Shown in pieces: positions 2,135 to 19,247 of a stretch of DNA of 47,672 bases. Source of the DNA: Lachnospiraceae bacterium. GTDB taxonomy: Bacteria > Bacillota > Clostridia > Lachnospirales > Lachnospiraceae. The notes below the pieces were generated by a model. The model was not told the origin of the DNA, made no database searches, and saw only the letters and a list, made by a program, of their open reading frames with translations. The stretch is from contig SVEK01000023.1 of NCBI GenBank assembly GCA_015057405.1, positions 1 through 47,672 of the forward strand, given 5' to 3'. A program made the position numbers and the translations under genes. Position 1 is the first letter of the stretch; every line of letters begins with the position of its first letter.

Positions 2135-2234
2135 AATAATATCCATCCTTTTTTCTTAGTCAGATTATCTCTGCTAATAAGAAGTACCTTTATATATCAA
2201 AAAAGTTTTAAATTACATAATATTTTTTATTCCA

Positions 2235-2271
2235 TAAAAAACATACAGCATCCGTTTTAGATACTGTATGT
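2235..2271 (-). terminator. Rho-independent terminator of the five-gene operon
   Basis: Arms ACATACAGCATC (2241-2252) and GATACTGTATGT (2260-2271) pair with one G-T mismatch. They are followed on the minus strand by a run of U (A-run 2236-2240 on the plus strand). The hairpin lies about 90 bases past the ion-channel stop and before the sigma gene. Confidence 0.8.
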
Positions 2272-2359: not shown

Positions 2360-4468
2360 TCAATGATTACTGAAAATAATCAGCTTATCATTTTTTTCAA
2401 TCTTAACATTCATTTTATTCTGTTCACCGGAAAATAATATAGTCTTTCCATTCGGCTTAACATAACCAAGCATTATGGATTTGTTATTATCAGGTGTTGT
2501 ACAATATATAGTTCTTATCAATTGAGAGGCTTTACATTCGAGCACATCCGGCATGTCTTTTAAAAATTCACCTGCCGTTTTCACATAGAGCTCCTTACTC
2601 TCATATTCTGTTGATTCTTCCTCATCATAGGTTAGAATATCTCTGTAAAAATCGTATAAAGCTTCCTTTTCACCTATCTGAGTTATCATTCTGCTTATGT
2701 ACCTGTTACTAATGACTACATTTGTTTTACTGTAGCTCTGAACAACATCGTAGTTCTTAGGATTAAGTATCTCGATTACAACATCTATTTTACCCGGATT
2801 GAAATTCTCATCGTTTGCAATTTTATCAGAGATCAAATCCTGTACATAAATAAGGTAGGTAAGCGCCTTAGAATCTATATCTTCTGTAAGTACATTATCA
2901 TCTGAAAGAATCAGAATACTTGTATCGGTTTCATGGGCATCCACAAATTCATTAATTCTTTGCGTTATTTCTTTCCACTCAAATATACTCGCAGCCATGC
3001 AATCTTTTACAAAGAATGTATCTTCACCTCTGTAGTAATCCTGCTTAACCAGACTTTCTTCATCATCAATGACTAAAATATTAAGTATATCCCGGTCTAT
3101 GCCGTCTTTATGCCCCCACTCTCCAACAAAGGTCTTAAATCCTTCCATGATATCTGACATACGGCTATTGTGTCCCAAAATTATAATATTACGTCTTTTT
3201 AGCCAATAATCTTTATTAACCCTGATATCAAGAAGTTCGTGCTTAACCTTTTCACTTCTGTAAACATCTTTCTCTTCCTCCGCAACGTAAAACATATGGT
3301 TACCGGTTTTAGTTTCCAAAGTTGTTATTGGGATTGCTGACACATGATTATTTAGATAATCTTTAATTATTTCTATTTCATCAACTCCATGGTCGCGATT
3401 ATCGCAGTAAAACTCAGCACCCTTATGAGAGAAAAGCTCACTGTAAACTTTATTAAGTTCCGGCATAATTGAAAACTGTGATAAAACCTGTCCCAATATT
3501 CTGTTGACCGGTACAGGAATTATATTACATTTTCCTGATTTTTCTTTATGGGCAATAATCTTTTCAACAAGCTGCGCAGTCCAATCATCTTCAATCTCCA
3601 CAACAATTATCTGATCATCTGCCGATTCCTCCGAAGAAGTGAATTCAGACACCTGTATTAAAGATTTAATTGTATCCGTATTGCCGCTTTCCCTTTGCTC
3701 AAGTTTTTCTTTATAGTCAAATCTACAAGTATTATTCTGGATATCCTTACCCAAAATTATAACTGTTCGCGCTTGAGATATGGAAATATCTGCAAGATGT
3801 TTTGTGGAGTATACATCCCCTTCTTTAACAATAACGGATAGCTTATTTCTAAGTCTGTGTTTTCTAATATAAAAAAATCTGTACAAAAAATTACGACCTT
3901 CACACATTTGTTCAAGACGTTTTCTTTCTTTTTTTACGGTCGCTGATATACGCTCGGATATTTCAAGTTTGACACCTTCACAATCTTCACTTATAAGCAC
4001 AATTACGACTTCTTTTTTGTTACTGTAGACAAGATCGTTAACAATTTCAGATGCACGGGAATTCCAGTTAATTATTATGATATGATCCGATACATTAATT
4101 GCATTCTTACCAAAATTAGCATTATCAATGAAATTAGAAATATAATTGGTTATATAACCGATTACTGCACCTGTAAATGTTATCATTCCCAGTAACACAG
4201 TAACCGTACATATAACAATCAAAGCAACTCCGGCTTGTCCAATATCTTCAACAACGTATTGTATACATCCGGCATCGAGAATCATACTTATAGTATAAAA
4301 TATTGACTCCCAATAACCCTCCGGACCTCTAAGGTCCGGAGAAAAAGCACTAATTATTGCTGCTGCCGCAAAAAATAAAACTATGTTTAAAAATAATATT
4401 GCTATCAATATTGCCCTTGCAGGCGCTTTTACAACGTATATACTTATTTTTTCTTTAAGCTTCTTCAT
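2360..4468 (-). CDS. CASTOR/POLLUX-type cation channel with RCK-like cytoplasmic domains
   Basis: 702 residues. There are two N-terminal membrane helices (about 17-42 and 80-105) around a pore-like segment, YTISMILDAGCIQ. The LDAG motif resembles the ADAG selectivity filter of plant CASTOR/POLLUX channels. A large cytosolic part has Rossmann/TrkA-N-like beta-alpha units: DHIIIINWNSRASEIVNDL near 130, ARTVIILGKD, and a second set at RRNIIILGHNSRMSDIMEGF near 445. Plant relatives gate K+/Ca2+ flux at the nuclear envelope; bacterial members are essentially uncharacterised. It is the last gene of the operon, 32 bases after the 1402-residue gene, with AGGAG 11 bases before ATG. The ion is unknown, and a simple RCK potassium channel is the main alternative. 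Confidence 0.8.
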   Translation of the reverse strand: MKKLKEKISIYVVKAPARAILIAILFLNIVLFFAAAAIISAFSPDLRGPEGYWESIFYTISMILDAGCIQYVVEDIGQAGVALIVICTVTVLLGMITFTGAVIGYITNYISNFIDNANFGKNAINVSDHIIIINWNSRASEIVNDLVYSNKKEVVIVLISEDCEGVKLEISERISATVKKERKRLEQMCEGRNFLYRFFYIRKHRLRNKLSVIVKEGDVYSTKHLADISISQARTVIILGKDIQNNTCRFDYKEKLEQRESGNTDTIKSLIQVSEFTSSEESADDQIIVVEIEDDWTAQLVEKIIAHKEKSGKCNIIPVPVNRILGQVLSQFSIMPELNKVYSELFSHKGAEFYCDNRDHGVDEIEIIKDYLNNHVSAIPITTLETKTGNHMFYVAEEEKDVYRSEKVKHELLDIRVNKDYWLKRRNIIILGHNSRMSDIMEGFKTFVGEWGHKDGIDRDILNILVIDDEESLVKQDYYRGEDTFFVKDCMAASIFEWKEITQRINEFVDAHETDTSILILSDDNVLTEDIDSKALTYLIYVQDLISDKIANDENFNPGKIDVVIEILNPKNYDVVQSYSKTNVVISNRYISRMITQIGEKEALYDFYRDILTYDEEESTEYESKELYVKTAGEFLKDMPDVLECKASQLIRTIYCTTPDNNKSIMLGYVKPNGKTILFSGEQNKMNVKIEKNDKLIIFSNH

Positions 4469-4500
4469 TTGAACGTATTCTCCTAATACACTTTACATTT

Positions 4501-7500
4501 TTATAATGGCTCATGCGGTCTGTCAAATGGAGTCATACCGTTTAACACAGTACCCTCACTAAGTGCATATACTTCACAATATTTTGCAAAGCCGTATCCA
4601 TACTCATCCTCTCTGCACAAAGTTCTTGCTTCTTCTAACTTTGCAGTGCTTATTTCATTGATTAAGAAAGCGTATTGTATCTCAACCCACTTCGCCATTC
4701 CCTCATATACCTGCAGTTCTAAATCAGGACCATATTTTCTGTATATTTCATCAGCATCCCAATTTAAATATTGCCAGATATGAGTCAATTCATGAACAAA
4801 GGTCATGGTTGCCTGAAGTTTAGGCGATCCGTTTTCAATTAACAAAGTATATTTTCCACGCTTGTTAATTGCAACTCCCAAAGTTCGTCCGTCAAAGTCT
4901 GCTGTTGGAATAAATGTTTCTCCCAAAGCCTTACTAAGTCTCTTGGCATTAACCATTTTAATTTCTACATCTGCCCTAATTGTAATTCCGTAGAAGAATT
5001 TAAGATTCTTGCATATCGTATGATAGATTTCAATAAACTCTTTCTCAGTCTTTATGGCAGTTTTACCACAATTACAACAACGTTCTCTTCCGTCCTGCAA
5101 TACTTCATACGTTATACCGGACAATTCTCTGCCACAAAAATCACAATAATGAACCTGATCATTAATTACAGCTGCTCTGTTAGCAAGCTGCTCTGCAAGC
5201 TCTATACCATATCGTGCCTGTTCAAGTTCACCGTTTTTGTACCCAAGATTAGAAAGCAGCGCCCGAACACCTTCTATATCCAACCATTCCGGAGTTTTTT
5301 CATCTCCGAACAACAGATAATAATTCAGATGGTACGGTTTTCTCTCCGTAATCTTGTTAATATCATCGTCTGCGTATTCTTCACCTTCGACAACTCCAGC
5401 TTCGACAACTTCATCCGACGACGGTTCTCCCTGTGGCACCATTCCTTCTTTGTCATCATCAACTTTCTTCCTTCCAAAGAACAATCTCTTGATGAACCTG
5501 AAAAATCTCTTAAATAATCTGATAATCCATCGCAAGAACTTGCCTATAATTCCGCCTCTAATAGGAGGCTCCAATGCTTCCTGTTCTTCTTCGGAAAGAA
5601 CAAAACTCGGCGGGTTCTTCTTTGCCGGTGTATTAAGACTTCTTTCAATTGCACTCTGATGCCAGTCAAAATAGTCATTAATCATCTCAAATATTCTGTG
5701 AAGATTACGACGAACCGCAACCAGCAAACCGATATCCAACTGACTGTCTTCGATTATATAGATACATTTATCACCAAGCTGTAAGTGTTCACCACCATTT
5801 ACCCTATATGTGTTTTGAACAATAGCCTCTCCTGCCGTTGTAGCAATGATAAAGCCCTGATTCTCGGCAAATAACGTTCTGAACATCTCATTCAACATTA
5901 CCGTTAGTGTATTGATTACCTTGTCGTTAACACCATCGCATTCAGAGAAATCAATACACATAATCTGTTTATTATAATAATTTCTTTCAGGAATTCCGTT
6001 AACCTCAATTTTTTTCCCATTAACAAAATCGTTATATGCTGACATCTGAATATATGCCGGAGTTTTAACATTAATATCCGCATACATCATCTGCAGTCTC
6101 ATTTTGTCATATACTATGTTATCTCCCATTTCGCCGGATTCCACCAAGTTGCTTAATGTGTAATCTCTAACCTGTCTGTACGTATATCTGTTAGAAAGCT
6201 GGTCAGCAGCGCGTCGGCAAATCAATTCGTTGGTTGCCGTCAATCGGATTATTTCATAGTATTTACCGTTAAACGTATGGAACTGTCCCGGCAAATGGTT
6301 CTGGAACATCTGCCCTACAAGCTCCGTTCCAAGGTATTGTTTGTCACCAAACTCATCCTCAGCAATATATCGGGCACTTAATAAATCCTGCAATACTAAA
6401 CGGATAAAATCTTTGTCCTCAATATAGTACTTTTTAACAACACCCAAATCCTTTAACGAATATTCTTTTTTGAGTTCGATAATGTCTCTGTAGAACGTGT
6501 ATTTCTCGCCATTCTCTTCTATAACAAGGGTTTTATTACCAGCAGAATCATCTTCACTTAGATTAATCTGCTGATTACATTCACAGATTATTTTCCATAA
6601 TTCCTCGATAACATCCGCTCCGGAAATTCCAACGTTTTTCAGTTCACAACGAATATCATCCTCAGGAACAAGATTTGTTGTCATTCTTAGACAAAGTCTC
6701 ATAGCAACATTTCGCTTTGTATGTGCATAATCAGCAACAATGTACGGAATTGCTTTAGGATCAGTTAACAACAAACTGTTGTTATCCGCCATGTAATCTT
6801 TCAACAGATAATCTCCTGACAATATATTGATAAATCCCTGTTTAGACGCTCTTGAAGAGAAACATCTGCGCATCTCAAACATGTTGTTTGATTCATCTTC
6901 TACAATAATGCATCTTCCGTTCCTTACTTTAGAACCCCACATGTTAACTTTTGATTGTAATACTTTGTCAATAACTTCCTGACTTGCCGGCAATTCTGCA
7001 TAATTAAGTAAATCATAATAATACTGCTTAACTATCCAGTGCATGTCAACAACAGGGAACGCCTCTCCTCCATACCAGGTTACCTTAGGAATCTGATTCT
7101 TAAGAGCTACCATGGCAAGTTCTGTTCCCATTCCGAGATACTGCGAAATATTAGGAAGTATTCTGTGTTGAAGCATTTCATCATCAGTTTCCCAACACAT
7201 ATACGATGATAATCCTTCATGATGATTGCTTGCACACACCTCAGTCAGACTAACCTGAAGCATATGGGACAGTGAGTCAACAAGACCATCACAGTTCTTG
7301 TCAACAGAACAATATACCATTTCATCTTTACATATCTCACACTGTCTCAGGATGGAATTGAGTCCCACCTGCGCAGTCGTAAGAAGACGGGATGGTTCAA
7401 TAATAACTACAAACCCTACACCCTTAAAGAAATCTTTATTGTTCTGCTGCATATTCATGTCATGCACGCACGAGCGGGTTACAATACCCACATTAAGATC

Positions 7501-8709
7501 CTGTTCTTCCTCAGAAAGTACACCAACTTTCCACAAATCCGGCAAATGATTAACTTTTGTAAGACCCTCTACGCACCATTTTTTAATATCTTCTTCAATA
7601 TCATGTCTACCCAGTATAATCATTACTTTCCTATGCTGCATTAACATTCTGTTCATAGGGTAAAACATGTACGGAATAAGGTCATAATAAAATGGATTAT
7701 TGAACACTATACTTTTACCGTTAAGAAGCTTTACTCCGGCTTCAAGATATCCCTGATCAAGCTCCATGCCGGCTTCTACTTTTCGACGCATAAATGTTCC
7801 GTATGCCTGCAATTTGGCATCTTCCTGCTTTTCAAGCTGCTCCAATACCTCATCATTGGTCTGAATCTCTGTCTGTATAGTATTAATTGATGTATTCTCA
7901 GACATTAACTTGTCTCCGAACAAATGTCTGAGGAACTTTCTTAAAATACTGTAATTACTTATTATGCGGGCATCATCATCTTCGCCGATAATATCTTCGA
8001 AATCTTCTTTTTTCTCTCCATTTACAAATGAATACACTTCAACAAGCATTATGACTATATATACCGGATAGAATAGATTCGTGGTTTTATTATCGTTAAA
8101 CAGATATATTGTACACGCCGAAATAAGACAGACCAATATATTTACAATGGTTATTACATACTTAACCAAATCTGTAGCCTGACCCCAATTACGAGCAACA
8201 TACCATTTACAATCCTCTTTATCATAACTGTAGAATACATTGATTTTTGCCAGTAATCCATTCTCATCCCCACTTATTTTTCTGTCCATGAATGACAAAA
8301 CCGGCTTTTTAATTAAACAATAAAGAACAATAACAGCAGGATTGAATATAGCATAAATTATTCTTGTAAGACCACTTGACGCATCAATAGCCTGAACAAA
8401 TCTGTCAAGGACCAGCTTGATAATCGAAATTACATTCTCAAACCCAACTACTGATGCAAATAAATCCAAAATCCTGTCTAAAATATTGGCTATAAACTCC
8501 GCAATATAATGAAAGAAATTGACAAGTTCATCATAAAATATACTTGCAACCATGCAATATATTATTGCAAACAACGGTAAAAATATCTGTTTGTATCTTT
8601 TATCCCTTCCAAGATTTGTTTTATACAAACTTGCAATTGCAACAAGGAAAGGAATAATATACACTAACTGGCTTACGAAAGACATAAGCTCACGCAAGAA
8701 ATCAATCAT
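4501..8709 (-). CDS. Polytopic membrane protein with degenerate helicase-like core, zinc ribbon and DA1-like HExxH peptidase
   Basis: 1402 residues. Residues 1-235 hold about five or six membrane helices. The cytosolic middle (about 290-1020) shows faint spacing similarity to SF2 helicases: a DEAD-box position reads VVIIEPSRLL, a SAT-like motif reads VYCSVDKNCDGLVDSL, and no Walker A is visible, so any ATPase activity is doubtful. After a basic patch (RRLFFGRKK type) there is a zinc ribbon with two CxxC pairs (C1189/C1192, C1211/C1214). A metallopeptidase domain follows with HELTHIWQ at 1306-1313 and a downstream Glu in YEGMAKW (E1336). That zinc-ribbon-then-HExxH...E order is what DA1-type peptidases show. 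GGGAGG lies 6 bases before the ATG, which overlaps the end of the upstream gene by 8 bases. The substrate is unknown. The peptidase call is solid; the helicase resemblance is tentative. Confidence 0.7.
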   Translation of the reverse strand: MIDFLRELMSFVSQLVYIIPFLVAIASLYKTNLGRDKRYKQIFLPLFAIIYCMVASIFYDELVNFFHYIAEFIANILDRILDLFASVVGFENVISIIKLVLDRFVQAIDASSGLTRIIYAIFNPAVIVLYCLIKKPVLSFMDRKISGDENGLLAKINVFYSYDKEDCKWYVARNWGQATDLVKYVITIVNILVCLISACTIYLFNDNKTTNLFYPVYIVIMLVEVYSFVNGEKKEDFEDIIGEDDDARIISNYSILRKFLRHLFGDKLMSENTSINTIQTEIQTNDEVLEQLEKQEDAKLQAYGTFMRRKVEAGMELDQGYLEAGVKLLNGKSIVFNNPFYYDLIPYMFYPMNRMLMQHRKVMIILGRHDIEEDIKKWCVEGLTKVNHLPDLWKVGVLSEEEQDLNVGIVTRSCVHDMNMQQNNKDFFKGVGFVVIIEPSRLLTTAQVGLNSILRQCEICKDEMVYCSVDKNCDGLVDSLSHMLQVSLTEVCASNHHEGLSSYMCWETDDEMLQHRILPNISQYLGMGTELAMVALKNQIPKVTWYGGEAFPVVDMHWIVKQYYYDLLNYAELPASQEVIDKVLQSKVNMWGSKVRNGRCIIVEDESNNMFEMRRCFSSRASKQGFINILSGDYLLKDYMADNNSLLLTDPKAIPYIVADYAHTKRNVAMRLCLRMTTNLVPEDDIRCELKNVGISGADVIEELWKIICECNQQINLSEDDSAGNKTLVIEENGEKYTFYRDIIELKKEYSLKDLGVVKKYYIEDKDFIRLVLQDLLSARYIAEDEFGDKQYLGTELVGQMFQNHLPGQFHTFNGKYYEIIRLTATNELICRRAADQLSNRYTYRQVRDYTLSNLVESGEMGDNIVYDKMRLQMMYADINVKTPAYIQMSAYNDFVNGKKIEVNGIPERNYYNKQIMCIDFSECDGVNDKVINTLTVMLNEMFRTLFAENQGFIIATTAGEAIVQNTYRVNGGEHLQLGDKCIYIIEDSQLDIGLLVAVRRNLHRIFEMINDYFDWHQSAIERSLNTPAKKNPPSFVLSEEEQEALEPPIRGGIIGKFLRWIIRLFKRFFRFIKRLFFGRKKVDDDKEGMVPQGEPSSDEVVEAGVVEGEEYADDDINKITERKPYHLNYYLLFGDEKTPEWLDIEGVRALLSNLGYKNGELEQARYGIELAEQLANRAAVINDQVHYCDFCGRELSGITYEVLQDGRERCCNCGKTAIKTEKEFIEIYHTICKNLKFFYGITIRADVEIKMVNAKRLSKALGETFIPTADFDGRTLGVAINKRGKYTLLIENGSPKLQATMTFVHELTHIWQYLNWDADEIYRKYGPDLELQVYEGMAKWVEIQYAFLINEISTAKLEEARTLCREDEYGYGFAKYCEVYALSEGTVLNGMTPFDRPHEPL

Positions 8710-10657
8710 ATAATTCCTCCCTTTCTACAGTAACTTTATCAAGCAAACCACCTGATACAACTGCATAATTTCCATTCTGCATATATACTATCTTTTTAGA
8801 CGTTAACGCGCTGTTAACCATCGGATAGCTATATCTTCGGAGTGTTACAAAATCGTATTCAAAATAATCAGTATATTCATCCATCGATGTTCCGTAAGGT
8901 ACGATAAACTGACCCATGATATCTCTGATTACTTCACGTTCACCACGAATGTCGGCAATGTGTTTTTTCATCATTTGTATTTTATTGAAACTTAACGCGA
9001 GATTATATTTATCTCTGTCAATAATCGAGTAGGCTCTCATCAAATTACATATTCTGCTCAAATAAACAGAATAATCAACATTGGTGTTATCTACTCTTTC
9101 AACAAATGACTTCATAATGCTATTGTATTCTCTGAATTTAACTACAAGCCTATGTCTGAATATCAGCAGAATTATTATTACTGCTATAAATACACTACCT
9201 AAAAGCCCGGCATATATTGCAAGTGTCATAGGCTTCATTATTTCATCCGTTTTCAAACATGAAATGATATACGGCAAACCTCCCAAGGCAACAATAAATA
9301 ATATAACCACACTTAATAACAAGGTATTTAATGATGTCATTCTCTTGCTAATGTTATCACGAACTACCTCGTTGTGTTTTTCCATTAATTCAAATTGTTC
9401 ATCAACATCATATATGCTCTCCGGCTGATTTTCCATCAGCATTATTTCATTCCTCTGTGCATATTCAATGATATCTTCCTGCTGAAATTCTTCCAGCAAT
9501 TTTTCACATTTTGAATCTGCCACACACTTTTCACTAACAGTTCCGGTAGCTCTCTTTAACATTCGTCTTGATGCTTTCAGAATACGTTGAACTGCGTCAT
9601 AGGATTTCTCAAATGCTTCAGTCCAGTATCCTGACTCACTACGCGGCTTATCAGTAGTTATTCCCGGAACTTTATCATCTACATAACAATCCGATTCACT
9701 AATACTGTATGCGCGATCTTTCAGTACGTCTATTCTTTCATCAAACAGTCTGTCCGTTTCATCTTCAGTCATATACTGTGGCGGAATTAACTCTAACTGC
9801 TTGATTTCATTCAATATAAATTGCTCGGTATTATCAAGTTTTTTATCGTAACCGGATATGATATATTGTACATTATGTCTGCTAAACTCACTGGACAACT
9901 TATATATCCTGTTCGGGGACAAACATCCTCTTGGTGTTGTATTATTGGCAACCGTAAGAATCGTCATAAGGAATCTAAAATAATCCCATTTATATTCAAC
10001 ATTCTTTTTGTCTAACATGTCAAATACCAGATATCTCATATTGTCAAAATACATATTATATTCATAAAACCTTGAATATGATAATTCATGATGTTCACCC
10101 CAAACATCATCAACTTTTCTCTTCTCATTATCACAAGTTCTTCTGGCTATACACAATAGCTCACTCGGATACACAAAAGTTAAATCATCTTCGCTTATCA
10201 GACCATTCCAAAGTTCAAGTTTTTTGTTAATCTCTGTTTGATATCTCTGTAGCTGTACAGGCGCTTCCTCGTCATACTCCGCTGTTACAACCGGTTTCGG
10301 GCAGAGCCTGGCCGTTAACTTAACCAAAGGATTGTCCATCGCTTTTTCATATAACATTAAAGTTTGTTTATGACGCTCTGCGTCATCGGTTACCCCTTTA
10401 ATTACCGGATAGTAATCCACATAATCAAAGGGATTATCTCTGGTTAACAACGACTCATCGCATATAACTACTGCTCTCCACTGTTCCTTTTTATATACCA
10501 AATTCTGCAACTGCGGAACTGCCGAATTAAAATTATTTTTTTCTGCATGCCACTCACAGAAAGCTACCTGAGTTTTATCGTACATATAACCCAAAAGCTT
10601 ATCATTGTCACTGATATCTTTAAGTAACTGCTTTTCAGCTATTACAACTGTAAACAC
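8702..10657 (-). CDS. Unknown two-helix membrane protein of the tubulin-like operon
   Basis: Not recognised. With the preferred GTG start it has 651 residues. A long cytosolic N-terminal part (about 445 residues, mixed alpha/beta at first, then acidic and helical) is followed by two membrane helices (near LLLSVVILFIVALGGLPYI and LLGSVFIAVIIILLIF) and a ~140-residue cytosolic C-terminal domain. The GTG at 10657 is chosen because a perfect GGAGGTG lies 5 bases upstream. The ATG eight codons earlier (10681) has no good ribosome site. The gene starts just after the tubulin-like gene and overlaps the next gene by 8 bases, so translation is probably coupled. Its place between a tubulin-like GTPase and a membrane peptidase suggests an adaptor between filament and membrane, which is inference only. 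Confidence 0.75.
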   Translation of the reverse strand: MFTVVIAEKQLLKDISDNDKLLGYMYDKTQVAFCEWHAEKNNFNSAVPQLQNLVYKKEQWRAVVICDESLLTRDNPFDYVDYYPVIKGVTDDAERHKQTLMLYEKAMDNPLVKLTARLCPKPVVTAEYDEEAPVQLQRYQTEINKKLELWNGLISEDDLTFVYPSELLCIARRTCDNEKRKVDDVWGEHHELSYSRFYEYNMYFDNMRYLVFDMLDKKNVEYKWDYFRFLMTILTVANNTTPRGCLSPNRIYKLSSEFSRHNVQYIISGYDKKLDNTEQFILNEIKQLELIPPQYMTEDETDRLFDERIDVLKDRAYSISESDCYVDDKVPGITTDKPRSESGYWTEAFEKSYDAVQRILKASRRMLKRATGTVSEKCVADSKCEKLLEEFQQEDIIEYAQRNEIMLMENQPESIYDVDEQFELMEKHNEVVRDNISKRMTSLNTLLLSVVILFIVALGGLPYIISCLKTDEIMKPMTLAIYAGLLGSVFIAVIIILLIFRHRLVVKFREYNSIMKSFVERVDNTNVDYSVYLSRICNLMRAYSIIDRDKYNLALSFNKIQMMKKHIADIRGEREVIRDIMGQFIVPYGTSMDEYTDYFEYDFVTLRRYSYPMVNSALTSKKIVYMQNGNYAVVSGGLLDKVTVEREELYD

Positions 10658-10693
10658 TCTTTCACCTCCATTCAATTTCATTTGAGGACTTCA

Positions 10694-13600
10694 TTATTTT
10701 CCTAAAAGTGTTTCCATCTCGTCTATAATAGCTACTGCATCTTTGAGCTGAGATTCTTCTAAAATGTACTTTCTAACCTTTCTGAATACAATGTCCATAA
10801 TATCATTATTAGCTATATCAATACCCCTGCTAACACTGGTATACTTCTTGTAATTTTCAACCAACAATTCAAACTGAGACTTCAATTCTTTACCCATCAT
10901 TGTTTTAATACTTGACTCAAGTTCATGACTTGTTATCTCATCCAGGAATATGTTGATTACTGCATCAATCATTGTCACAATTTCATCATGTGAACGCAAT
11001 GAGCTAGGAAGAGAATTATAGTACACGAACGGAACTTCAAATAAACTAATAGGAGTCTTGTCATCGCCGTGGAAGCATTCAATAGCTAATTTGTTAAGGC
11101 CTAACTTGAATGACGAATTCTCATAGTTAGTGTTCTTTTCTTTGTCATGCTCTACATATTTATTCTTAACATCTTCAAGTTCTGACACAACCATCGGATT
11201 AATATATAACGCATCCAGTACTTCATAGAACTCATCACAAACAGAACCATTCTGTGTAATAAGTTCGGTTTCAGTGCAGTCATCATCAATATACACGTAC
11301 TTCTTACCACTGCCTTCTTCGTTGGAAATCGGCTTGTATTTGAAACATTTGTATATGAAACCATACATCATTGTCTGGTGTACACGCATAATACATGCTC
11401 TATTGTAGTCCATATCAAGTTCCGGCATTTTTGCTATAGAATCCCATCTCTTATCAATATGGGTTGAAATCTTCAATTCCTTCATGGAATCCGGGCTAAT
11501 TGTCTTTGAATAGTCAACATATGCCTTATGATAAAGACCGGCAGGAATAACTCTGACTTCCTCTTTCTTCTCACAACAGAACTTGTCTATCCTATCCGGT
11601 GTAAGGTTGTATAATGCTGTAAAGAAATGTATCTCATATGAAGATATCGTATCAGTTGCAACCCTGCCATCAAGAATCTTATCTATTCTGTATCCTTTCA
11701 TATTGTCAAGAGACTTGTTATATGCACATAAAGGAATCTCTCTCTTTTCTGAAAATGCTACCGGCTGTATACCCGGTGCAGCAAGTCTTCTTCCTCTGCT
11801 TATTACCTCATTGATATGTTCCAAATCATCTTCTGCTGTTACATTATCTACTATCTTCTCATCAGTTTCACCCATCATCTCACGTAATTTAATTCTTCTG
11901 ATAAGACGATTTTCTCTTGCAATCGCTTCAATGATATTCATATCAAGACCTTCTGCATTAGCGCGTACATCTTCCTTGAAATATTTAAGAAGAATCGTAT
12001 CAAACAAATCAATAAATCCGTTTTCTTCAATAACATCCAAGTGCTTTGTCTCTTCTTCAAACCTTACATTTGCCTTAATGGCATCAAACAATTTACCACA
12101 AAGTTCAGAATCCAGCATATTCTCCGTATCAATTCTTGTAGTGGTTCTTTCAAGCTCTTCAAGTATGTCTGCCCTTGAACAAATATTTACATCAGAATCG
12201 CCTTTTCTGTACTTAAGGTCTTCTACTAAGTCTTCTCTTCTCTTCTCCAACAAAACAACTTTGCTCGAGAATGAATTATAAAACTTCTCAAACTGTGCAT
12301 TAACCATTTTGATATATGACAAACCGGAACGAATTGTCTGATAACTTACAATATTCGTTTCCAATTCCGTAAGAATCTCATGCATCTTCATAAATGCAGT
12401 ATTCAGAACATCATAATATTCATCGTCTTTCTTAGAAATGGTTTTTGCAATAGCACCTTGCTTACTGTACTCTTCATCCTCTTCTATAAACTTGTCAATG
12501 TTACAATACCTTTCGTTATTAGCTTCAAATACGGTCTTAGATGCATCCGGTGTAACACTGTATCTTGCAAGATCTTCTCTTAGGCTTGTTACTTCTCCTT
12601 CGTAGAATTCAATCTTCTCTGCAAAGCATTTCTCCAATTCATACAATACAAAACGCATAGCATTCGGATGCATAATTGACTTGTCAGAACATTTTAACAA
12701 CGCTTCAATCATGTAAGATTCAAAATCCAACGCCGTCTTCTGCTCATTCTTAAACAATAAATCAGCATCGTTGCCAGCTTTCTTTTCTATATAACTTAGC
12801 AATCTTTCTACATCTCTCAATTTCTTAAGATTATCTTCTGCAGTTCCTCTTTTTCCGTCATCATTATAATCAATCGCATACCGAAGGTCCTCTATCTCTT
12901 CATTAGCCACAGAAACTTTTGGATCATTTATAACACATTTATTAAACATATGCTCCATCAGATTGTCCACATAACTTGGAATCTTAGTTGCTACAACATC
13001 ATTAAGCTTATACATATCAACCAACGATTTGCTAAACTTATCTGTCGAACCAAGCATAGTTGCTGTGTAAACATCTCTTCTTTTTGGCCATTCCGATTCA
13101 GGAAGTCCATCATTCTTCGCCTTTCTGCGAGCAACATCATAAGCCTTATCGTAACGAGACCATTTAGATGCTTCTTCCGAGCCGCCAATACTGTCAATTG
13201 CCCATCCGTATGCCACATAGTCAGCAATTGTTTCGTATGGATATACTATGGTTGATGCTCCTATACCACCAAAACGGTTACGCGCAAAGTTACCCGGACT
13301 GCAGAATTCTCTTATTATATTATCCTCTATTGAAATTGCGTCTCTTTGCATCGGTCCAATGTTCTGTTCATATAATGCTTTTGCTGCCTGCTCAATATAC
13401 TGTGCTTTACTATTAAGCGTATTATCCTCTGTATTCTGACCATCTAAAAGAAAACAGAAATCACATGGCAGACAATCAAGCCTCAATAACTCATTGGTGC
13501 CCGGCTCCGTGAATTCCATACAAAGATCTTTATAACGATTAAGAGAAGGATCTGTATCAAATATTCCCGTTCCCTTCATCATAAATGCATTCATTTCTTT

Positions 13601-14254
13601 AATTGTTGCATACGCATTTCTTCTTTGATTCTCTTTTTCCGTATTAGATTTAATTTCATTATCTAATGTTTCCGGAAGAAGAAGCATAGATCTTATAATC
13701 AATCCGGTATTAGGATATTTTGACACTATATAATTACGTATATACATGGAAAGCGGCAGTACAATACCGGAACCGGTACCACCTGAAGCAGAAGACACGA
13801 TGGTAACTCTTAATGCCTGCTGTAACGGCTCTCCGTCTTTTCTAAACAAATCGTCAATTGCTCTTATAAGTTCATTAATATTTCCGTTCTTTATTGTTGC
13901 ATTAAGAGCAAGTCTTGAAATTGCACGTACCTGACCGGCTCCTTCTGATACAGTTTTGTTAAACAATACATTATTCTTTGGGAACCAGTATGTCATAGCA
14001 TCTTTATCATGTCCAAGATAATCCCCAACAGTCTGTGAACTTGATGTCTGTACATAATACAGCTTTGCCTTTGAATTTAATACATCCCTTAAATCATTAA
14101 CATTAGTATCCAGACATACAAAATTAACATTGTCCGTTTCTCCCGGTCTGCACATCTCAGCTACTTTGGTTACTATCTGGCTACCAATTCCGCCTACTCC
14201 CACAAATAAAGTCCTTGCCTTAACCTCGTTTGACTTAATAAACTCTTTTCTCAT
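10694..14254 (-). CDS. Large tubulin/FtsZ-like GTPase (Tubulin_2-like family)
   Basis: 1186 residues, about three times the length of FtsZ. The N-terminal GTPase domain has the glycine-rich loop VGVGGIGSQIV (18-28), the FtsZ-like GAGQVR (105-110) and the tubulin signature SASGGTGSG (155-163) that contacts nucleotide phosphates. The remaining ~750 residues are mostly helical with coiled-coil stretches and match nothing I recognise. Related long FtsZ-like proteins have been described in bacterial operons with vWA genes and proposed to act in membrane remodelling. The same arrangement is seen here, with a vWA gene 29 bases upstream. AGGAGG lies 6 bases before the ATG. It is not the cell-division FtsZ, since it has no FtsZ-type short C-terminal tail and sits outside a division cluster. 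Filament formation is inferred from the family. Confidence 0.85.
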   Translation of the reverse strand: MRKEFIKSNEVKARTLFVGVGGIGSQIVTKVAEMCRPGETDNVNFVCLDTNVNDLRDVLNSKAKLYYVQTSSSQTVGDYLGHDKDAMTYWFPKNNVLFNKTVSEGAGQVRAISRLALNATIKNGNINELIRAIDDLFRKDGEPLQQALRVTIVSSASGGTGSGIVLPLSMYIRNYIVSKYPNTGLIIRSMLLLPETLDNEIKSNTEKENQRRNAYATIKEMNAFMMKGTGIFDTDPSLNRYKDLCMEFTEPGTNELLRLDCLPCDFCFLLDGQNTEDNTLNSKAQYIEQAAKALYEQNIGPMQRDAISIEDNIIREFCSPGNFARNRFGGIGASTIVYPYETIADYVAYGWAIDSIGGSEEASKWSRYDKAYDVARRKAKNDGLPESEWPKRRDVYTATMLGSTDKFSKSLVDMYKLNDVVATKIPSYVDNLMEHMFNKCVINDPKVSVANEEIEDLRYAIDYNDDGKRGTAEDNLKKLRDVERLLSYIEKKAGNDADLLFKNEQKTALDFESYMIEALLKCSDKSIMHPNAMRFVLYELEKCFAEKIEFYEGEVTSLREDLARYSVTPDASKTVFEANNERYCNIDKFIEEDEEYSKQGAIAKTISKKDDEYYDVLNTAFMKMHEILTELETNIVSYQTIRSGLSYIKMVNAQFEKFYNSFSSKVVLLEKRREDLVEDLKYRKGDSDVNICSRADILEELERTTTRIDTENMLDSELCGKLFDAIKANVRFEEETKHLDVIEENGFIDLFDTILLKYFKEDVRANAEGLDMNIIEAIARENRLIRRIKLREMMGETDEKIVDNVTAEDDLEHINEVISRGRRLAAPGIQPVAFSEKREIPLCAYNKSLDNMKGYRIDKILDGRVATDTISSYEIHFFTALYNLTPDRIDKFCCEKKEEVRVIPAGLYHKAYVDYSKTISPDSMKELKISTHIDKRWDSIAKMPELDMDYNRACIMRVHQTMMYGFIYKCFKYKPISNEEGSGKKYVYIDDDCTETELITQNGSVCDEFYEVLDALYINPMVVSELEDVKNKYVEHDKEKNTNYENSSFKLGLNKLAIECFHGDDKTPISLFEVPFVYYNSLPSSLRSHDEIVTMIDAVINIFLDEITSHELESSIKTMMGKELKSQFELLVENYKKYTSVSRGIDIANNDIMDIVFRKVRKYILEESQLKDAVAIIDEMETLLGK

Positions 14255-14283
14255 AAGTTACCTCCTCTTGTAAATTAATAATT

Positions 14284-16803
14284 TTATCTAAAGATTAATT
14301 CTCCTTCAATCCTAACGGTTTTCCTTACTCCCCCATCTAACGCCGTTGTTTTAAATGCTACCCTGGTTCCATTTTTTACATCACCCGACAAGTAAATCAT
14401 CGGCTCTTTTCTAAGCTTTTTCTCGTATATACACGATCCGCAACTTACTGATATACTCGGTGCATCCGTGGCATTTGCCGCAACAACCGAAATATCTTTA
14501 ATTTTCACCTTCCTTTTCTTTGATTTAACATAACGTCTGCTTGCCGGTTCCATCGAGAATTCTATAGAAATACTTCCGATATCAGGATGTAATGATGATC
14601 TTCCGTTTATTTTTAGTTTCTTCCTCTTTCCCTTTTTCATATAACGAGACTTTGCCTTCAAAAACACGATAGAAGTATTTCCTTTGGGTTTGTCTGGGCG
14701 AAAAACAATAGTACGTGGCATTACTTTCCTTGTCATGTATATCAAAATAATTAGTAGAATCAACGCTATTATAAATAATCTGATAAGCATTGGTACCCAA
14801 TCCGGATACGGTCGATAAGCTACTTTTTTTGAATCATCTGCCTTAAGTTCATAACCGGTTTCATCAATTAAAGAAGCTGTGACATTAATCTTATATTTAC
14901 CTGACTTTATCTTATCCCCATTTTTTACTATAAGATTAAAGGATGAATCATCTGCAACCGGTTCAGGAGAAAATTCCAAACCTTCTGCATCTACAGTTAA
15001 CTTAACCCCAGCCAATTGTTCGCCGGTTAATTCTTTCCCGTCCATTAAAACTTTAACATTAAGTGGTTCTTTTTCATCTATCTTAGAAATCTGGTAAAAA
15101 CTATCTCCTTTTACAAACTCCACATCAAGAGAATGCACCTCTCCCTGTACGGCAAATTGGGTTGCTCCCTTAGTGGACATGGTTTTGTCGTGTTCATCGG
15201 TATATGATGCTTTTATGGCTAACTTATAATCACCTTTTTCAGTCTCATAAATCTCACCACGGTTCTTTAGTTTTACATATATTCCTGAATCTTCTTTAAT
15301 AACTTCACAATCAAGATTTCCGCCTTTTAAGGTAGCATCAACAGAAACTCTGTCAAGCTGTTCGCCTGCAAGAGGTTGTCCGTCATACACAAAATCCAAC
15401 TTATAAACACCCTCTTCTTCAAGGGTAGCCAATTCATATACTTCTTTTCCTCCGGACACCTGCATTACTAATTCCCCGACAGGCCAATCTACTATAGAAA
15501 GACCTCCCGCAGGCCATCCAAGTTCCTCTCCGGTTTTCTTAATCTTATAATCACCCAGATAGATTACCTGGGCACTAACATCAATTGTATCCCCTGCATT
15601 AAGCTCCACACTTATTTTTCCGTTGTTGTCGCTGTTTTCTGCCTTAGCAGTTCCGTTAACATTATATATTATCTCGAAGTCTCTTCTCCCAAGAAGTGAT
15701 GATTCGGTAAATGCACCGCTACTATCAACAATACCGTATTCGATACAATATTTTCCCGGATGCATGTCCGAACCGGCCGTTATAGGAACGCCTGCCTCGT
15801 CAGTAAGTCTCACTGTCAAATCAACATTCGGTTCATAATATACCCCAACGTCTGTCGCATTACCGCTATATTTAAGCTTATATTTTCCTTTTTCGAGATT
15901 AGAATATATAGCTATGACACCACTAAGATTTTTATCTATCTTAAAGTTAGGTGCACTGCTTCCTTTTTCACTATACTTCGGCGAATATGTATAATCAGGT
16001 TTCCCGATAGAATTGCCGTCAGCATCCGTAACTTTTATATCAGATATTCCTTTTCCCTGTACAAAAATAATCAACTTGCTCATTCCGACATCAAAGGACA
16101 TTCCGTTTTTCGTACTGTCAAGTTCATCTCGGCCAAATATCATATTTGACATTTTAGTCAAAGACTTTAATATCTTATCCGAGGTACTTGCTTTCTCGTA
16201 ATAATACTTATATTTACTTTTTTTCACTTCCGGAATAACAGGATTAGAACCTATCCCCAGGTACATAATATTAAGATCTTTAGCGTATTTAGATAACATC
16301 TCAGATAATTTTTTTTCAGAATCTGATTTAGACATCTTTTTTTTGTTTTTGTAGAATTCTGCGCCGTCCGTAAGAACTATGAGCCATTTTTCATCTGCTT
16401 TTTGGTTTTTGATACCCTTGTATGCCTCTGTTACGGTTTCGATATGAGTATCACCCTTAGCTTCAACAGAAAAGAACTGTCTGATAACGGATGTATCGGA
16501 GCCACCTTCTAACACCAATGGCTTATTCATGGTGTACTCTGTTTTCTTGACCCTCATCTTATTCATCGGAAACACTCTGAGGGTATCTCCGTCATTAAGC
16601 ATTGATGCAAAAACCTCAACTGCATACGTTGCACGACACCATGCATCATCATTAATATACATTGAACCGGAGTTGTCAAACACAATAGAAATTTCACGTT
16701 TGACACTCTTTTTCTCAGCAGCACGACCTACATTTCCTAATACCATCATGCCACATAAAATGCACAACAAAAACACCCCAACCCTAGATAACGCTTTTTT
16801 CAT
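14284..16803 (-). CDS. Secreted vWA-domain protein with C-terminal membrane anchor
   Basis: 839 residues, first gene of the five-gene operon. A signal peptide (to about residue 30, ending GRAA) precedes a von Willebrand A domain with an intact metal site: DNSGS near 41, a downstream Thr in the SDTS/GDTH region, and Asp in VLTDGAEF. Several extracellular Ig-like beta repeats follow (about 230-660). One membrane helix (about 668-690; LFIIALILLIILIYM) and a ~150-residue basic cytoplasmic tail end the protein. The start was moved 12 codons downstream of the longest frame because GGGAGG lies 8 bases before this ATG and the signal peptide begins here. vWA domains bind protein ligands through a divalent metal. 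The topology could link an outside ligand to the tubulin-like GTPase inside, which is inference. Confidence 0.85.
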   Translation of the reverse strand: MKKALSRVGVFLLCILCGMMVLGNVGRAAEKKSVKREISIVFDNSGSMYINDDAWCRATYAVEVFASMLNDGDTLRVFPMNKMRVKKTEYTMNKPLVLEGGSDTSVIRQFFSVEAKGDTHIETVTEAYKGIKNQKADEKWLIVLTDGAEFYKNKKKMSKSDSEKKLSEMLSKYAKDLNIMYLGIGSNPVIPEVKKSKYKYYYEKASTSDKILKSLTKMSNMIFGRDELDSTKNGMSFDVGMSKLIIFVQGKGISDIKVTDADGNSIGKPDYTYSPKYSEKGSSAPNFKIDKNLSGVIAIYSNLEKGKYKLKYSGNATDVGVYYEPNVDLTVRLTDEAGVPITAGSDMHPGKYCIEYGIVDSSGAFTESSLLGRRDFEIIYNVNGTAKAENSDNNGKISVELNAGDTIDVSAQVIYLGDYKIKKTGEELGWPAGGLSIVDWPVGELVMQVSGGKEVYELATLEEEGVYKLDFVYDGQPLAGEQLDRVSVDATLKGGNLDCEVIKEDSGIYVKLKNRGEIYETEKGDYKLAIKASYTDEHDKTMSTKGATQFAVQGEVHSLDVEFVKGDSFYQISKIDEKEPLNVKVLMDGKELTGEQLAGVKLTVDAEGLEFSPEPVADDSSFNLIVKNGDKIKSGKYKINVTASLIDETGYELKADDSKKVAYRPYPDWVPMLIRLFIIALILLIILIYMTRKVMPRTIVFRPDKPKGNTSIVFLKAKSRYMKKGKRKKLKINGRSSLHPDIGSISIEFSMEPASRRYVKSKKRKVKIKDISVVAANATDAPSISVSCGSCIYEKKLRKEPMIYLSGDVKNGTRVAFKTTALDGGVRKTVRIEGELIFR

Positions 16804-16863
16804 TGGTACATCCTCCCAAGTTAATAACTTATACCCCAAAATACTATCGTTTACCTACGCAAT

Positions 16864-16892
16864 AATATACCATAATTTAATTATTTGTTCAA
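16864..16892 (-). promoter_or_regulatory. Sigma-A promoter of the five-gene operon
   Basis: On the minus strand, TTGAAC (16887-16892) and TATATT (16864-16869) are separated by exactly 17 bases. The inferred start near 16857 gives a leader of about 55 bases before the vWA gene. No other clear promoter was seen between the operon genes. Confidence 0.75.
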
Positions 16893-19037: not shown

Positions 19038-19247
19038 TTACTCTTTTTCAATCTTATATCCCAGTTTTACAATTAATTTCAATGTTTCTAATGCGGTATT
19101 TCTGTCATAATCTTTTTCACTCTCAGCAAGCTCCTCATAAGGAACAAGTAATGGTGTGATTTTATTGGCGGCATCTTTTTTTTCACCGTAAACCCAGCCC
19201 TCAGAAATTCTTCCGACAGCAAACTCCCTATCTGGATAATTTGTGAA
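19038..19247 (-). pseudogene. 5'-truncated RyR-domain remnant
   Basis: The minus-strand frame from a stop at 19248-19250 to the stop at 19038-19040 encodes about 69 residues, of which the last ~64 read as the C-terminal two thirds of a RyR (ryanodine-receptor repeat) domain. Visible motifs are GRISEGWVYGEKKD, LLVPYEELAESEKDYDR and ALETLKLIVKLGYKI. There is no ATG, GTG or TTG before the domain and no ribosome site. The frame also overlaps the last 20 bases of pfkA. The best reading is a gene whose 5' part was deleted when it became joined to pfkA. A +1 frameshift off the end of pfkA could in principle fuse it to the enzyme, but no slippery site is seen. Confidence 0.65.

What the first reader, a model, noticed from the sequence alone, without database searches (positions are those of the whole stretch)
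2360..16892. Five-gene tubulin-like / vWA / DA1-peptidase / POLLUX-channel operon
Five genes on one strand with gaps of 8-base overlap to 43 bases, one 17-spaced promoter in front and one terminator behind. They encode a secreted vWA sensor with a cytoplasmic tail, a 1186-residue FtsZ/tubulin-like GTPase, a two-helix unknown, a 1402-residue membrane peptidase and a CASTOR/POLLUX-like channel. FtsZ-like/vWA pairs have been noted and proposed for membrane remodelling. I am not aware that a DA1-type peptidase and a POLLUX-type channel have been tied to them in one machine. The whole could sense an external ligand, assemble a filament and act on membrane potential or protein turnover. That function is inference.
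Basis: partly seen in the sequence, partly recalled or inferred. Interest (0 to 1): 0.85.

Follow-up and report, generated by a model that had tools for sequence, protein, structure and literature searches.

The report
Tubulin-vWA membrane machine with ion channel
A gut bacterium carries a gene set, also found in many other bacteria, for an unstudied membrane machine built around a tubulin-like protein and a surface sensor, here joined to a calcium-channel-like protein; what it does is not yet known.

Summary
The five genes are real and co-directional; four form a conserved core. In 79 loci picked only by tubulin similarity, the vWA gene lies beside the tubulin gene in 75 of 76 loci with room, P3 in 67 of 70, the P4 core in 64 of 65 and the P4 peptidase in 58 of 60. 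P4 is two modules: a polytopic protein with a superfamily-2 helicase fold (Foldseek to MrfA, E 1.8e-21) without an ATP-binding motif (0 of 62), and a zinc peptidase that is a separate ORF in 21 of 56 loci. The POLLUX-like channel is a recurrent accessory, not core: it lies within 6.1 kb on the same strand in the window and 8 other genomes, on either side, and a strong homologue occurs in 12 of 79 core genomes. A class-wide sample showed no co-occurrence besides the window. Other lineages couple the core to a type-VII-like ATPase with ESX-like and toxin-domain proteins, RCK-RyR-like proteins, transglutaminase-like proteins or TIR proteins. I read it as a surface-sensing, GTPase-based membrane machine with exchangeable outputs. 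The mechanism is inferred.

The parts
14284..16803 (-). vWA gene, corrected start: signal anchor, extracellular vWA and beta-rich region, one C-terminal membrane helix, ~150-residue cytoplasmic tail (topology by hydropathy)
   Evidence: neighbour of the tubulin gene in 75 of 76 loci with room
16663..16677 (-). MIDAS motif D43-x-S-x-S of the vWA domain
   Evidence: D43, S45, S47 invariant in 58 aligned members; DxSxS in 67 of 67 relatives over 650 aa
10694..14254 (-). Tubulin_2 / FtsZl1-type GTPase, 1186 aa
   Evidence: PF13809 E 3.2e-52
13766..13783 (-). GTP-binding loop GGTGSG of the tubulin-like protein
   Evidence: GGTGSG in 75 of 76 relatives over 500 aa, GGTGAG in 1
8702..10681 (-). P3: N-terminal alpha/beta domain, two membrane helices (about 9161-9319), long coiled coil, small C-terminal beta domain; no known family
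   Evidence: beside the tubulin gene in 67 of 70 loci with room
5650..8709 (-). P4 N-terminal part: membrane helices (six predicted here), then a degenerate SF2-helicase-fold core (from about 7746)
   Evidence: AlphaFold2 pLDDT 84.3; Foldseek 6znp_A E 1.8e-21; no P-loop pattern in the core of 62 relatives
4501..5337 (-). P4 C-terminal part: four-cysteine zinc module and HELTH...EGMA metallopeptidase
   Evidence: separate ORF in 21 of 56 relatives
2360..4468 (-). POLLUX/CASTOR-like channel with RCK-like cytoplasmic part, 702 aa
4268..4276 (-). D-A-G of the predicted selectivity filter (LDAGC)
   Evidence: LDAGC in 16 of 16 aligned homologues; CASTOR filter AD265S(A)GNHA in PMC6697748 (passage)
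16864..16892 (-). promoter-like site TTGAAC-17-TATATT; not above chance
2241..2271 (-). intrinsic-terminator-like hairpin, 13 pairs, then T5

Best explanation
The operon encodes a conserved membrane machine plus one of several exchangeable outputs. Shown: a four-gene core (vWA, tubulin-like GTPase, P3, P4) keeps its order across Bacillota, Actinomycetota and MAGs labelled Myxococcota, Pseudomonadota and Bacteroidota; the metal site of the vWA domain, the GTP loop of the tubulin and the zinc site of the peptidase are conserved; P4 is predicted to have a helicase fold and lacks the ATP-site motif; different lineages carry different channel-like, secretion-like or enzyme genes beside the core. 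Inferred: the extracellular vWA domain binds a ligand or a neighbouring surface; the signal crosses to the cytoplasmic face, where P3 and the pseudo-helicase of P4 tether the tubulin-like GTPase and let it assemble when GTP-bound; this releases the zinc peptidase and opens the partner output. In this genome the output is a cation channel of CASTOR/POLLUX type, probably Ca2+-permeable, so the expected response is cation influx plus cleavage of a membrane-near substrate.
For: Core order: vWA 75 of 76, P3 67 of 70, P4N 64 of 65, P4C 58 of 60, all five modules 54 of 58 loci with full room. Conserved active-site motifs. Recurrent predicted membrane spans: vWA two in 61 of 67, P3 two in 58 of 60. 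POLLUX association: 5 of 6 strong-POLLUX genomes also hold P4 among 299 family genomes; own genome left out, Fisher p 5e-7. POLLUX is same-strand within 6.1 kb of the core in 9 genomes, on both sides. Alternative outputs: T7-like ATPase, RCK-RyR-like, transglutaminase-like genes.
Against: No interaction, expression or activity is shown. In a class-wide sample strong POLLUX (3 of 291) and P4 (4 of 291) overlap only in the window genome. Strong POLLUX also occurs with no core in the stretch around it (G509, G479, G308, G301, G366). 67 of 79 core genomes lack a strong POLLUX. For FtsZl1 proteins the T6-H7 elements of the fold could not be confidently identified, so filaments are uncertain (PMC2875224, parts read). 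Related genomes cluster on the tree, so the Fisher p overstates independence.
Confidence: 0.4

Rival explanations
1. The core is the membrane part of a type-VII-like, contact-dependent secretion apparatus in all lineages. In the window the motor ATPase and substrates are absent, replaced or encoded elsewhere.
For: 14 of the 79 core genomes, and G288, carry the ATPase family or its N-terminal part directly behind the core. It is nearest to EccC/EssC (TIGR03924 E 4.7e-21, TIGR03928 E 1e-19), with Walker A and B intact in 9 of 9 looked at. ESX-like small genes were found in 10 of 10 downstream stretches examined (nine of the ten supplied sequences to one or both profiles, L239 to neither). One small protein passes PF10824 (26.4 vs 23.5 bits); two toxin-domain proteins pass PF15644 and PF03496.
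Against: The ATPase was not found in the window genome, and in only 17 of 50 genomes (49 of them core genomes other than the window's) at E 1e-20 or better. It has no predicted membrane helix in 9 of 9 and one intact P-loop, unlike membrane-bound EssC/EccC. Its NCBIfam scores are far below cut-offs (75 vs 509 bits). Among rows in the tree it is confined to one supported 21-row set that does not hold the window.
Confidence: 0.25
2. It is an immune or conflict device: the sensor detects attack and the machine kills or silences the cell through ion leak, proteolysis or TIR activity.
For: TIR proteins near several cores; a published class of tubulin/vWA/GTPase conflict systems (PMC7159879, section 29 read); patchy distribution, P4 in 8 of 299 family genomes.
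Against: PADLOC gave no convincing match for the five proteins (one weak 2TM hit, E 0.014). No DO-GTPase or GAP1 match among the nine window genes scanned against Pfam. The core order is very stable, which I would not expect of a rapidly exchanged defence system (inference).
Confidence: 0.17
3. It is a membrane-remodelling cytoskeleton, as proposed for FtsZl1/vWA operons; the channel is a bystander or a stretch sensor.
For: Family membership and the published proposal (PMC2875224).
Against: Among the accessory genes identified here the recurrent ones are channel-like, transglutaminase-like and secretion-ATPase-like; many accessory genes were not identified.
Confidence: 0.1
4. POLLUX is merely a neighbour, with no functional tie to the core.
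For: Strong POLLUX is absent from 67 of 79 core genomes; free-standing copies exist; class-wide sample shows no overlap beyond the window.
Against: Nine same-strand linkages in both relative positions; enrichment in the family sample.
Confidence: 0.15

Closest known systems
FtsZl1 (Tubulin_2) / vWA operons, Makarova and Koonin 2010 (PMC2875224)
   Same: Tubulin_2 protein with a long helical C-terminus, beside a secreted/membrane vWA protein and lineage-specific membrane proteins
   Different: P3, P4 pseudo-helicase/peptidase, POLLUX and the T7-like links are not named in the parts I read (parts 1-3 of 5); the supplementary gene lists were not available, so some of these families may be among their unnamed A/B families
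GAP1-N2 / DO-GTPase tubulin systems, Kaur et al. 2020 (PMC7159879)
   Same: tubulin plus membrane vWA in Bacillota; in one DO-GTPase2 locus (L023) an FtsK ATPase gene also lies beside them
   Different: no DO-GTPase or GAP1 match among the nine window genes scanned; one tubulin instead of two; P3 and P4 present
Type VII secretion variants T7SSa-T7SSj (PMC11217815)
   Same: in one lineage an EccC/EssC-like ATPase with paired small helical proteins and toxin-domain genes
   Different: ATPase without predicted membrane helix and with one intact P-loop; envelope part is vWA-tubulin-P3-P4. The words tubulin and FtsZ do not occur in that paper's main text
CASTOR/POLLUX/DMI1 plant Ca2+ channels (PMC6697748)
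   Same: colinear RCK-type homology to CASTOR (6o6j E 3.8e-9); D-A-G in the filter position
   Different: bacterial, two or three predicted membrane helices in the 16 aligned, window member below the Pfam cut-off
MrfA / DUF1998 SF2 helicases
   Same: predicted fold of the P4 core
   Different: no P-loop, DExH place reads EPS in most, fused to membrane helices
DA1 peptidases
   Same: four-cysteine zinc module before an HExxH...E peptidase (the DA1 architecture is recalled)
   Different: PF12315 matched by 6 of 40 relatives only, best E 0.018, and not among the window member's matches

Membership tests
FtsZl1 / Tubulin_2 | PF13809 score over cut-off | tested here: met
   178.4 bits vs 27
FtsZl1 / Tubulin_2 | glycine-rich GTP loop, GGGTG(S/T)G in the paper | tested here: met
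   GGTGSG in 75 of 76 relatives and in the window
FtsZl1 / Tubulin_2 | vWA gene in the operon | tested here: met
   75 of 76 loci with room
FtsZl1 / Tubulin_2 | forms filaments | not testable with these tools
   needs biochemistry; no such experiment in the passages I read
GAP1-N2 / DO-GTPase systems | GTPase and GAP1 genes beside the tubulin | tested here: not met
   no GTPase family other than tubulin in Pfam scans of the five genes and two flanking genes
CASTOR/POLLUX channels | Pfam Castor_Poll_mid over cut-off | tested here: not met
   22.7 vs 26.7 bits; 4 of 16 homologues match at E<=0.001
CASTOR/POLLUX channels | profile similarity to solved CASTOR/DMI1 chains | tested here: met
   6o6j E 3.8e-9, 7vm8 E 7.3e-8
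CASTOR/POLLUX channels | acidic filter D-(S/A)-G | tested here: met
   LDAGC in 16 of 16; filter sequence from PMC6697748 passage
CASTOR/POLLUX channels | Ca2+ conduction | not testable with these tools
   needs electrophysiology
DA1 peptidase | PF12315 over cut-off | tested here: not met
   6 of 40 members at E<=1, best 0.018
DA1 peptidase | zinc module then HExxH...E (recalled) | tested here: met
   four invariant Cys; E, T and second H of HELTH invariant, first His and the later Glu 90% or more, 40 members
SF2 helicase | tandem RecA-like fold | tested here: met
   on a predicted model: Foldseek MrfA E 1.8e-21, TM on target 0.55-0.62
SF2 helicase | Walker A and DExx motifs | tested here: not met
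   GxxxxGK[ST] in the core of 0 of 62 core-length relatives (the one match among 78 P4 ORFs lies in a peptidase part); aligned places read mostly PFYRDL and EPS; the hhalign score itself is not significant
Type VII secretion | EccC/EssC-like ATPase of this kind in the window genome | tested here: not met
   no match to the L062 ATPase at E<=1e-20 in G000, which is about 94% complete
Type VII secretion | membrane-bound, several-NTPase-domain ATPase (in the ATPase-bearing relatives) | tested here: not met
   no predicted TM in 9 of 9, one P-loop
Type VII secretion | WXG100-type small partners (in the ATPase-bearing relatives) | tested here: inconclusive
   PF10824 passes for one of two proteins tested, WXG100 only E 0.012, below cut-off; PDB searches gave only generic helical proteins

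The most novel reading that the evidence does not exclude
vWA-tubulin-P3-P4 is a new class of tubulin-driven envelope machine in which a GTPase polymer and a membrane-tethered pseudo-helicase form a common chassis that lineages load either with a type-VII-like toxin export motor or with Ca2+-type channels: one contact-triggered device that can either fire proteins out or let ions in.
Probability: 0.22. Interest if true: 0.92.

Novelty: new variant of a known kind. Interest (0 to 1): 0.72.

Why it matters
Tubulin_2/vWA operons were described in 2010, and I saw no experiment on them in the passages I read. The data here fix a testable core, give P4 a predicted fold, and tie the core in different lineages to calcium-type channels and to type-VII-like toxin modules. 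If right, a tubulin relative works in signalling or secretion across the envelope rather than in division, and a bacterial relative of the plant symbiosis Ca2+ channels gains a genomic context. Named cultured hosts with the core exist (Faecalicatena contorta, Microbacterium sp., Leucobacter salsicius, Neobacillus niacini).

Tried and rejected
Rejected: DA1 family membership (profile score too low). Rejected: promoter as evidence (chance level). Rejected: 'the other Tubulin_2 loci in the family are the same system': the five fetched (L016-L018, L022, L023) show no P3 or P4; L023 holds a DO-GTPase2 gene; three further weaker Tubulin_2 matches were not looked at beyond their short loci. Rejected as a clean test: empty-site comparison with same-genus G270; of 28 window genes only the one at 19228 and dnaE match in the 40 kb fetched, so there is no simple insertion boundary. 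Led nowhere: P3 fold search (best E 0.02, no match at E 0.001); Pfam on P3 relatives gave hits that look like membrane composition; PDB searches of the small proteins; profile search of P4 against PDB sequences; literature searches. In the listings of searches I saw no paper on a tubulin/POLLUX or tubulin/type VII link; one search listed 20 of 22 and one search listed 20 of 436, I opened five papers in part, and the library holds open-licence PMC papers only, so this is weak evidence of absence.


Full report
WHAT IS THERE. Five minus-strand genes span 2360-16803. In order of transcription: a vWA protein, a Tubulin_2 protein, P3, P4 and a POLLUX-like protein. Gaps are 29, 12, -8 and 32 bases. 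The vWA gene probably starts at ATG 16803 behind GGGAGG. Promoter-like sites are at chance level; a 13-pair hairpin with T5 follows the last gene.

IDENTITY OF THE PROTEINS. The tubulin-like protein is PF13809 at E 3.2e-52. The vWA domain is below the Pfam cut-off in the window protein, but its MIDAS residues are invariant in 58 aligned members, and 17 of 58 match VWA_2 at E 0.01 or better. P3 matches no family convincingly; its model (pLDDT 88.5) has an N-terminal alpha/beta domain, two membrane helices, a long coiled coil and a small beta domain, and finds no significant fold match. P4 is two modules. Residues 203-1402 were modelled with 55 sequences (pLDDT 84.3, pTM 0.76). The best Foldseek hits (50 shown) are nearly all superfamily-2 helicases or complexes that contain one, led by MrfA (6znp_A E 1.8e-21, 6zns TM 0.62 on the target). 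No P-loop pattern lies in the core of 62 core-length relatives; the single match among 78 P4 ORFs falls in a peptidase part. A profile alignment to seven PF09369-bearing helicases places NPFYYDLI over TPTASGKT and EPS over DE.H; that alignment's own score is not significant (E 0.019, probability 2.5%), so the fold rests on the model. I therefore call it a pseudo-helicase. The C-terminal module has four invariant cysteines and HE[LM]THIWQ...EGMA in most members; it is fused to the core in 35 and a separate ORF in 21 of 56 loci (two of the 21 are in frame and may be interrupted genes or assembly errors, and frameshifts in MAGs cannot be excluded for others). DA1 similarity is weak (6 of 40); DUF6782 is the commonest weak match (40 of 40, best E 1.1e-4).

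THE CORE IS CONSERVED. A scan with the tubulin alignment gave 79 distinct loci. Six-frame profile searches find vWA directly upstream in 75 of 76 loci with room (miss: L097), P3 downstream in 67 of 70 (misses L090, L098, L099; in L098 and L099 a two-helix gene of 722-723 aa sits in that place but scores below threshold), P4N in 64 of 65 (miss L090) and P4C in 58 of 60 (misses L075, L090). With full room all five modules are present in 54 of 58. The profiles were built in part from these same loci, so these counts measure presence, not independent discovery. Record titles place the loci in Bacillota, Actinomycetota and MAGs labelled Myxococcales, Proteobacteria and Bacteroidetes. Five other Tubulin_2 loci of the family (L016-L018, L022, L023) show no P3 or P4 in the 16-20 kb fetched, so the core marks a subfamily.

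POLLUX IS AN ACCESSORY, BUT A RECURRENT ONE. Among 299 family genomes six hold a POLLUX homologue above 690 bits and eight hold P4 (the G237 match is diverged, E 2.7e-29); five hold both. With the window genome left out, 4 of 5 POLLUX genomes hold P4 against 3 of 293 others (Fisher p 5e-7; relatedness not corrected). Among 79 core-bearing genomes 12 hold a strong POLLUX (600 bits or more). In a class-wide sample strong POLLUX (490 bits or more) is in 3 of 291 and P4 in 4 of 291, overlapping only in the window genome: that sample gives no support for association. Physical linkage on the same strand, within 6.1 kb: the window (downstream) plus L024, L047 and L056 (upstream) and L067, L127, L181, L182 and L188 (downstream). 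This is a lower bound, since only 1 of 79 loci holds 6.1 kb behind the core and 44 hold it in front. Copies without a core in the stretch fetched: G237 (29 kb from its P4), G308, G301, G366, G509, G479; G304, G226 and G332 lie on short contigs and cannot tell. The 16 aligned homologues all read LDAGC at the filter position. CASTOR has AD265S(A)GNHA and is a Ca2+-regulated Ca2+ channel (PMC6697748: start of abstract in a listing, and passages). A profile of the bacterial set finds CASTOR at E 3.8e-9 with colinear pieces.

OTHER OUTPUTS. In 14 of the 79 core genomes (13 loci directly, plus the L084 genome through L188) and in G288 the gene behind the core matches an FtsK/SpoIIIE ATPase family, full or nearly full length in about ten and only its N-terminal part in others. 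NCBIfam ranks it nearest to type VII EccC/EssC but far below cut-offs. Ten downstream stretches were examined and all ten hold matches to both small helical families; nine of the ten supplied sequences to one or both profiles, and one (L241) lies on another contig than its core. One small protein passes PF10824. Behind them lie toxin-domain genes, of which two passed Pfam cut-offs (PF15644, PF03496), while three other candidates tested matched nothing convincing. The ATPase was not found in the window genome. A family of RCK-RyR-like proteins with two or three predicted membrane helices is linked to 10 of the 79 (7 within the loci, 3 in later stretches) and to two further genomes; its name rests on one member over the RyR cut-off (L133) and weak matches in L127 and L237, while L094, L189 and L182 matched nothing. 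Transglutaminase-like proteins, most with an N-terminal hydrophobic segment, are linked to 9 of 79 and the same two; one member was tested and passes PF01841. TIR proteins occur near several cores. On the tubulin tree the ATPase-bearing rows all lie in one supported 21-row set, and the window falls in another set of 16 rows; the tree is a quick one with warned long branches.

HOW IT MAY WORK. Shown or predicted from sequence: order, conserved motifs, fold of P4, membrane spans. Inferred: outside binding by the MIDAS vWA domain, signal across the membrane, GTP-dependent assembly of the tubulin-like protein on a P3/P4 tether, release of the zinc peptidase and opening of the partner output. In the window that output would be cation influx through POLLUX. 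The type-VII-like relatives raise the rival that the core is itself an export apparatus.

PRIOR WORK. PMC2875224 (parts 1-3 of 5 read) describes FtsZl1/vWA operons and proposes membrane remodelling; a reviewer there proposed transport or signalling instead. PMC7159879 (section 29 and passages) describes GTPase-centred tubulin/vWA conflict systems; 'type VII', CASTOR, RyR and DA1 do not occur in its main text as whole words. PMC11217815 (abstract, passages and sections 9, 13 and 16) describes T7SSc-T7SSj; words beginning with tubulin or FtsZ do not occur in its main text. PMC9871819 (passages) sets Tubulin_2 proteins aside as divergent.

Noticed in passing
window 71-2146 (-): A 691-residue protein joining sigma-70 regions 2 and 4 (Pfam E 9.6e-9 and 3.2e-12) to a predicted membrane helix, a further part and a lysine/proline repeat tail; an ECF-type sigma factor that may be membrane-anchored.
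   Followed up: no
L023 1951-5289: A locus with two tubulin-like genes, a vWA gene and a DO-GTPase2 gene also carries an FtsK/SpoIIIE ATPase (PF01580 E 6.8e-18) without predicted membrane helices just upstream of the vWA gene, hinting that such ATPases go with more than one tubulin/vWA type.
   Followed up: partly
L075 9-18999: A Turicibacter MAG with the core repeated head to tail: Tub-P3-P4 followed by vWA-Tub-P3-P4.
   Followed up: no
L098 19560-20510: In a Neobacillus locus a ribose-phosphate pyrophosphokinase-like gene lies close behind the core; similar-sized genes follow in L099 and L101.
   Followed up: no
L043, L052, L079, L089: Actinomycetota loci share a 272-321-residue one-helix protein behind the core; the L043 copy matches GmrSD_C (E 1.2e-15).
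   Followed up: partly
L185 8075-12114; L187 8745-12059: POLLUX copies with no core in the stretch sit next to the RCK-RyR-like gene (L185) or the transglutaminase-like gene (L187), the same accessory set seen at cores.
   Followed up: partly
L027 2645-4609: A TIR domain in one protein with a Ser/Thr protein kinase domain, upstream of a core.
   Followed up: no
L237 10788-11126: A 112-residue protein made of short GYGWG-type repeats several genes behind an ESX-like pair.
   Followed up: no
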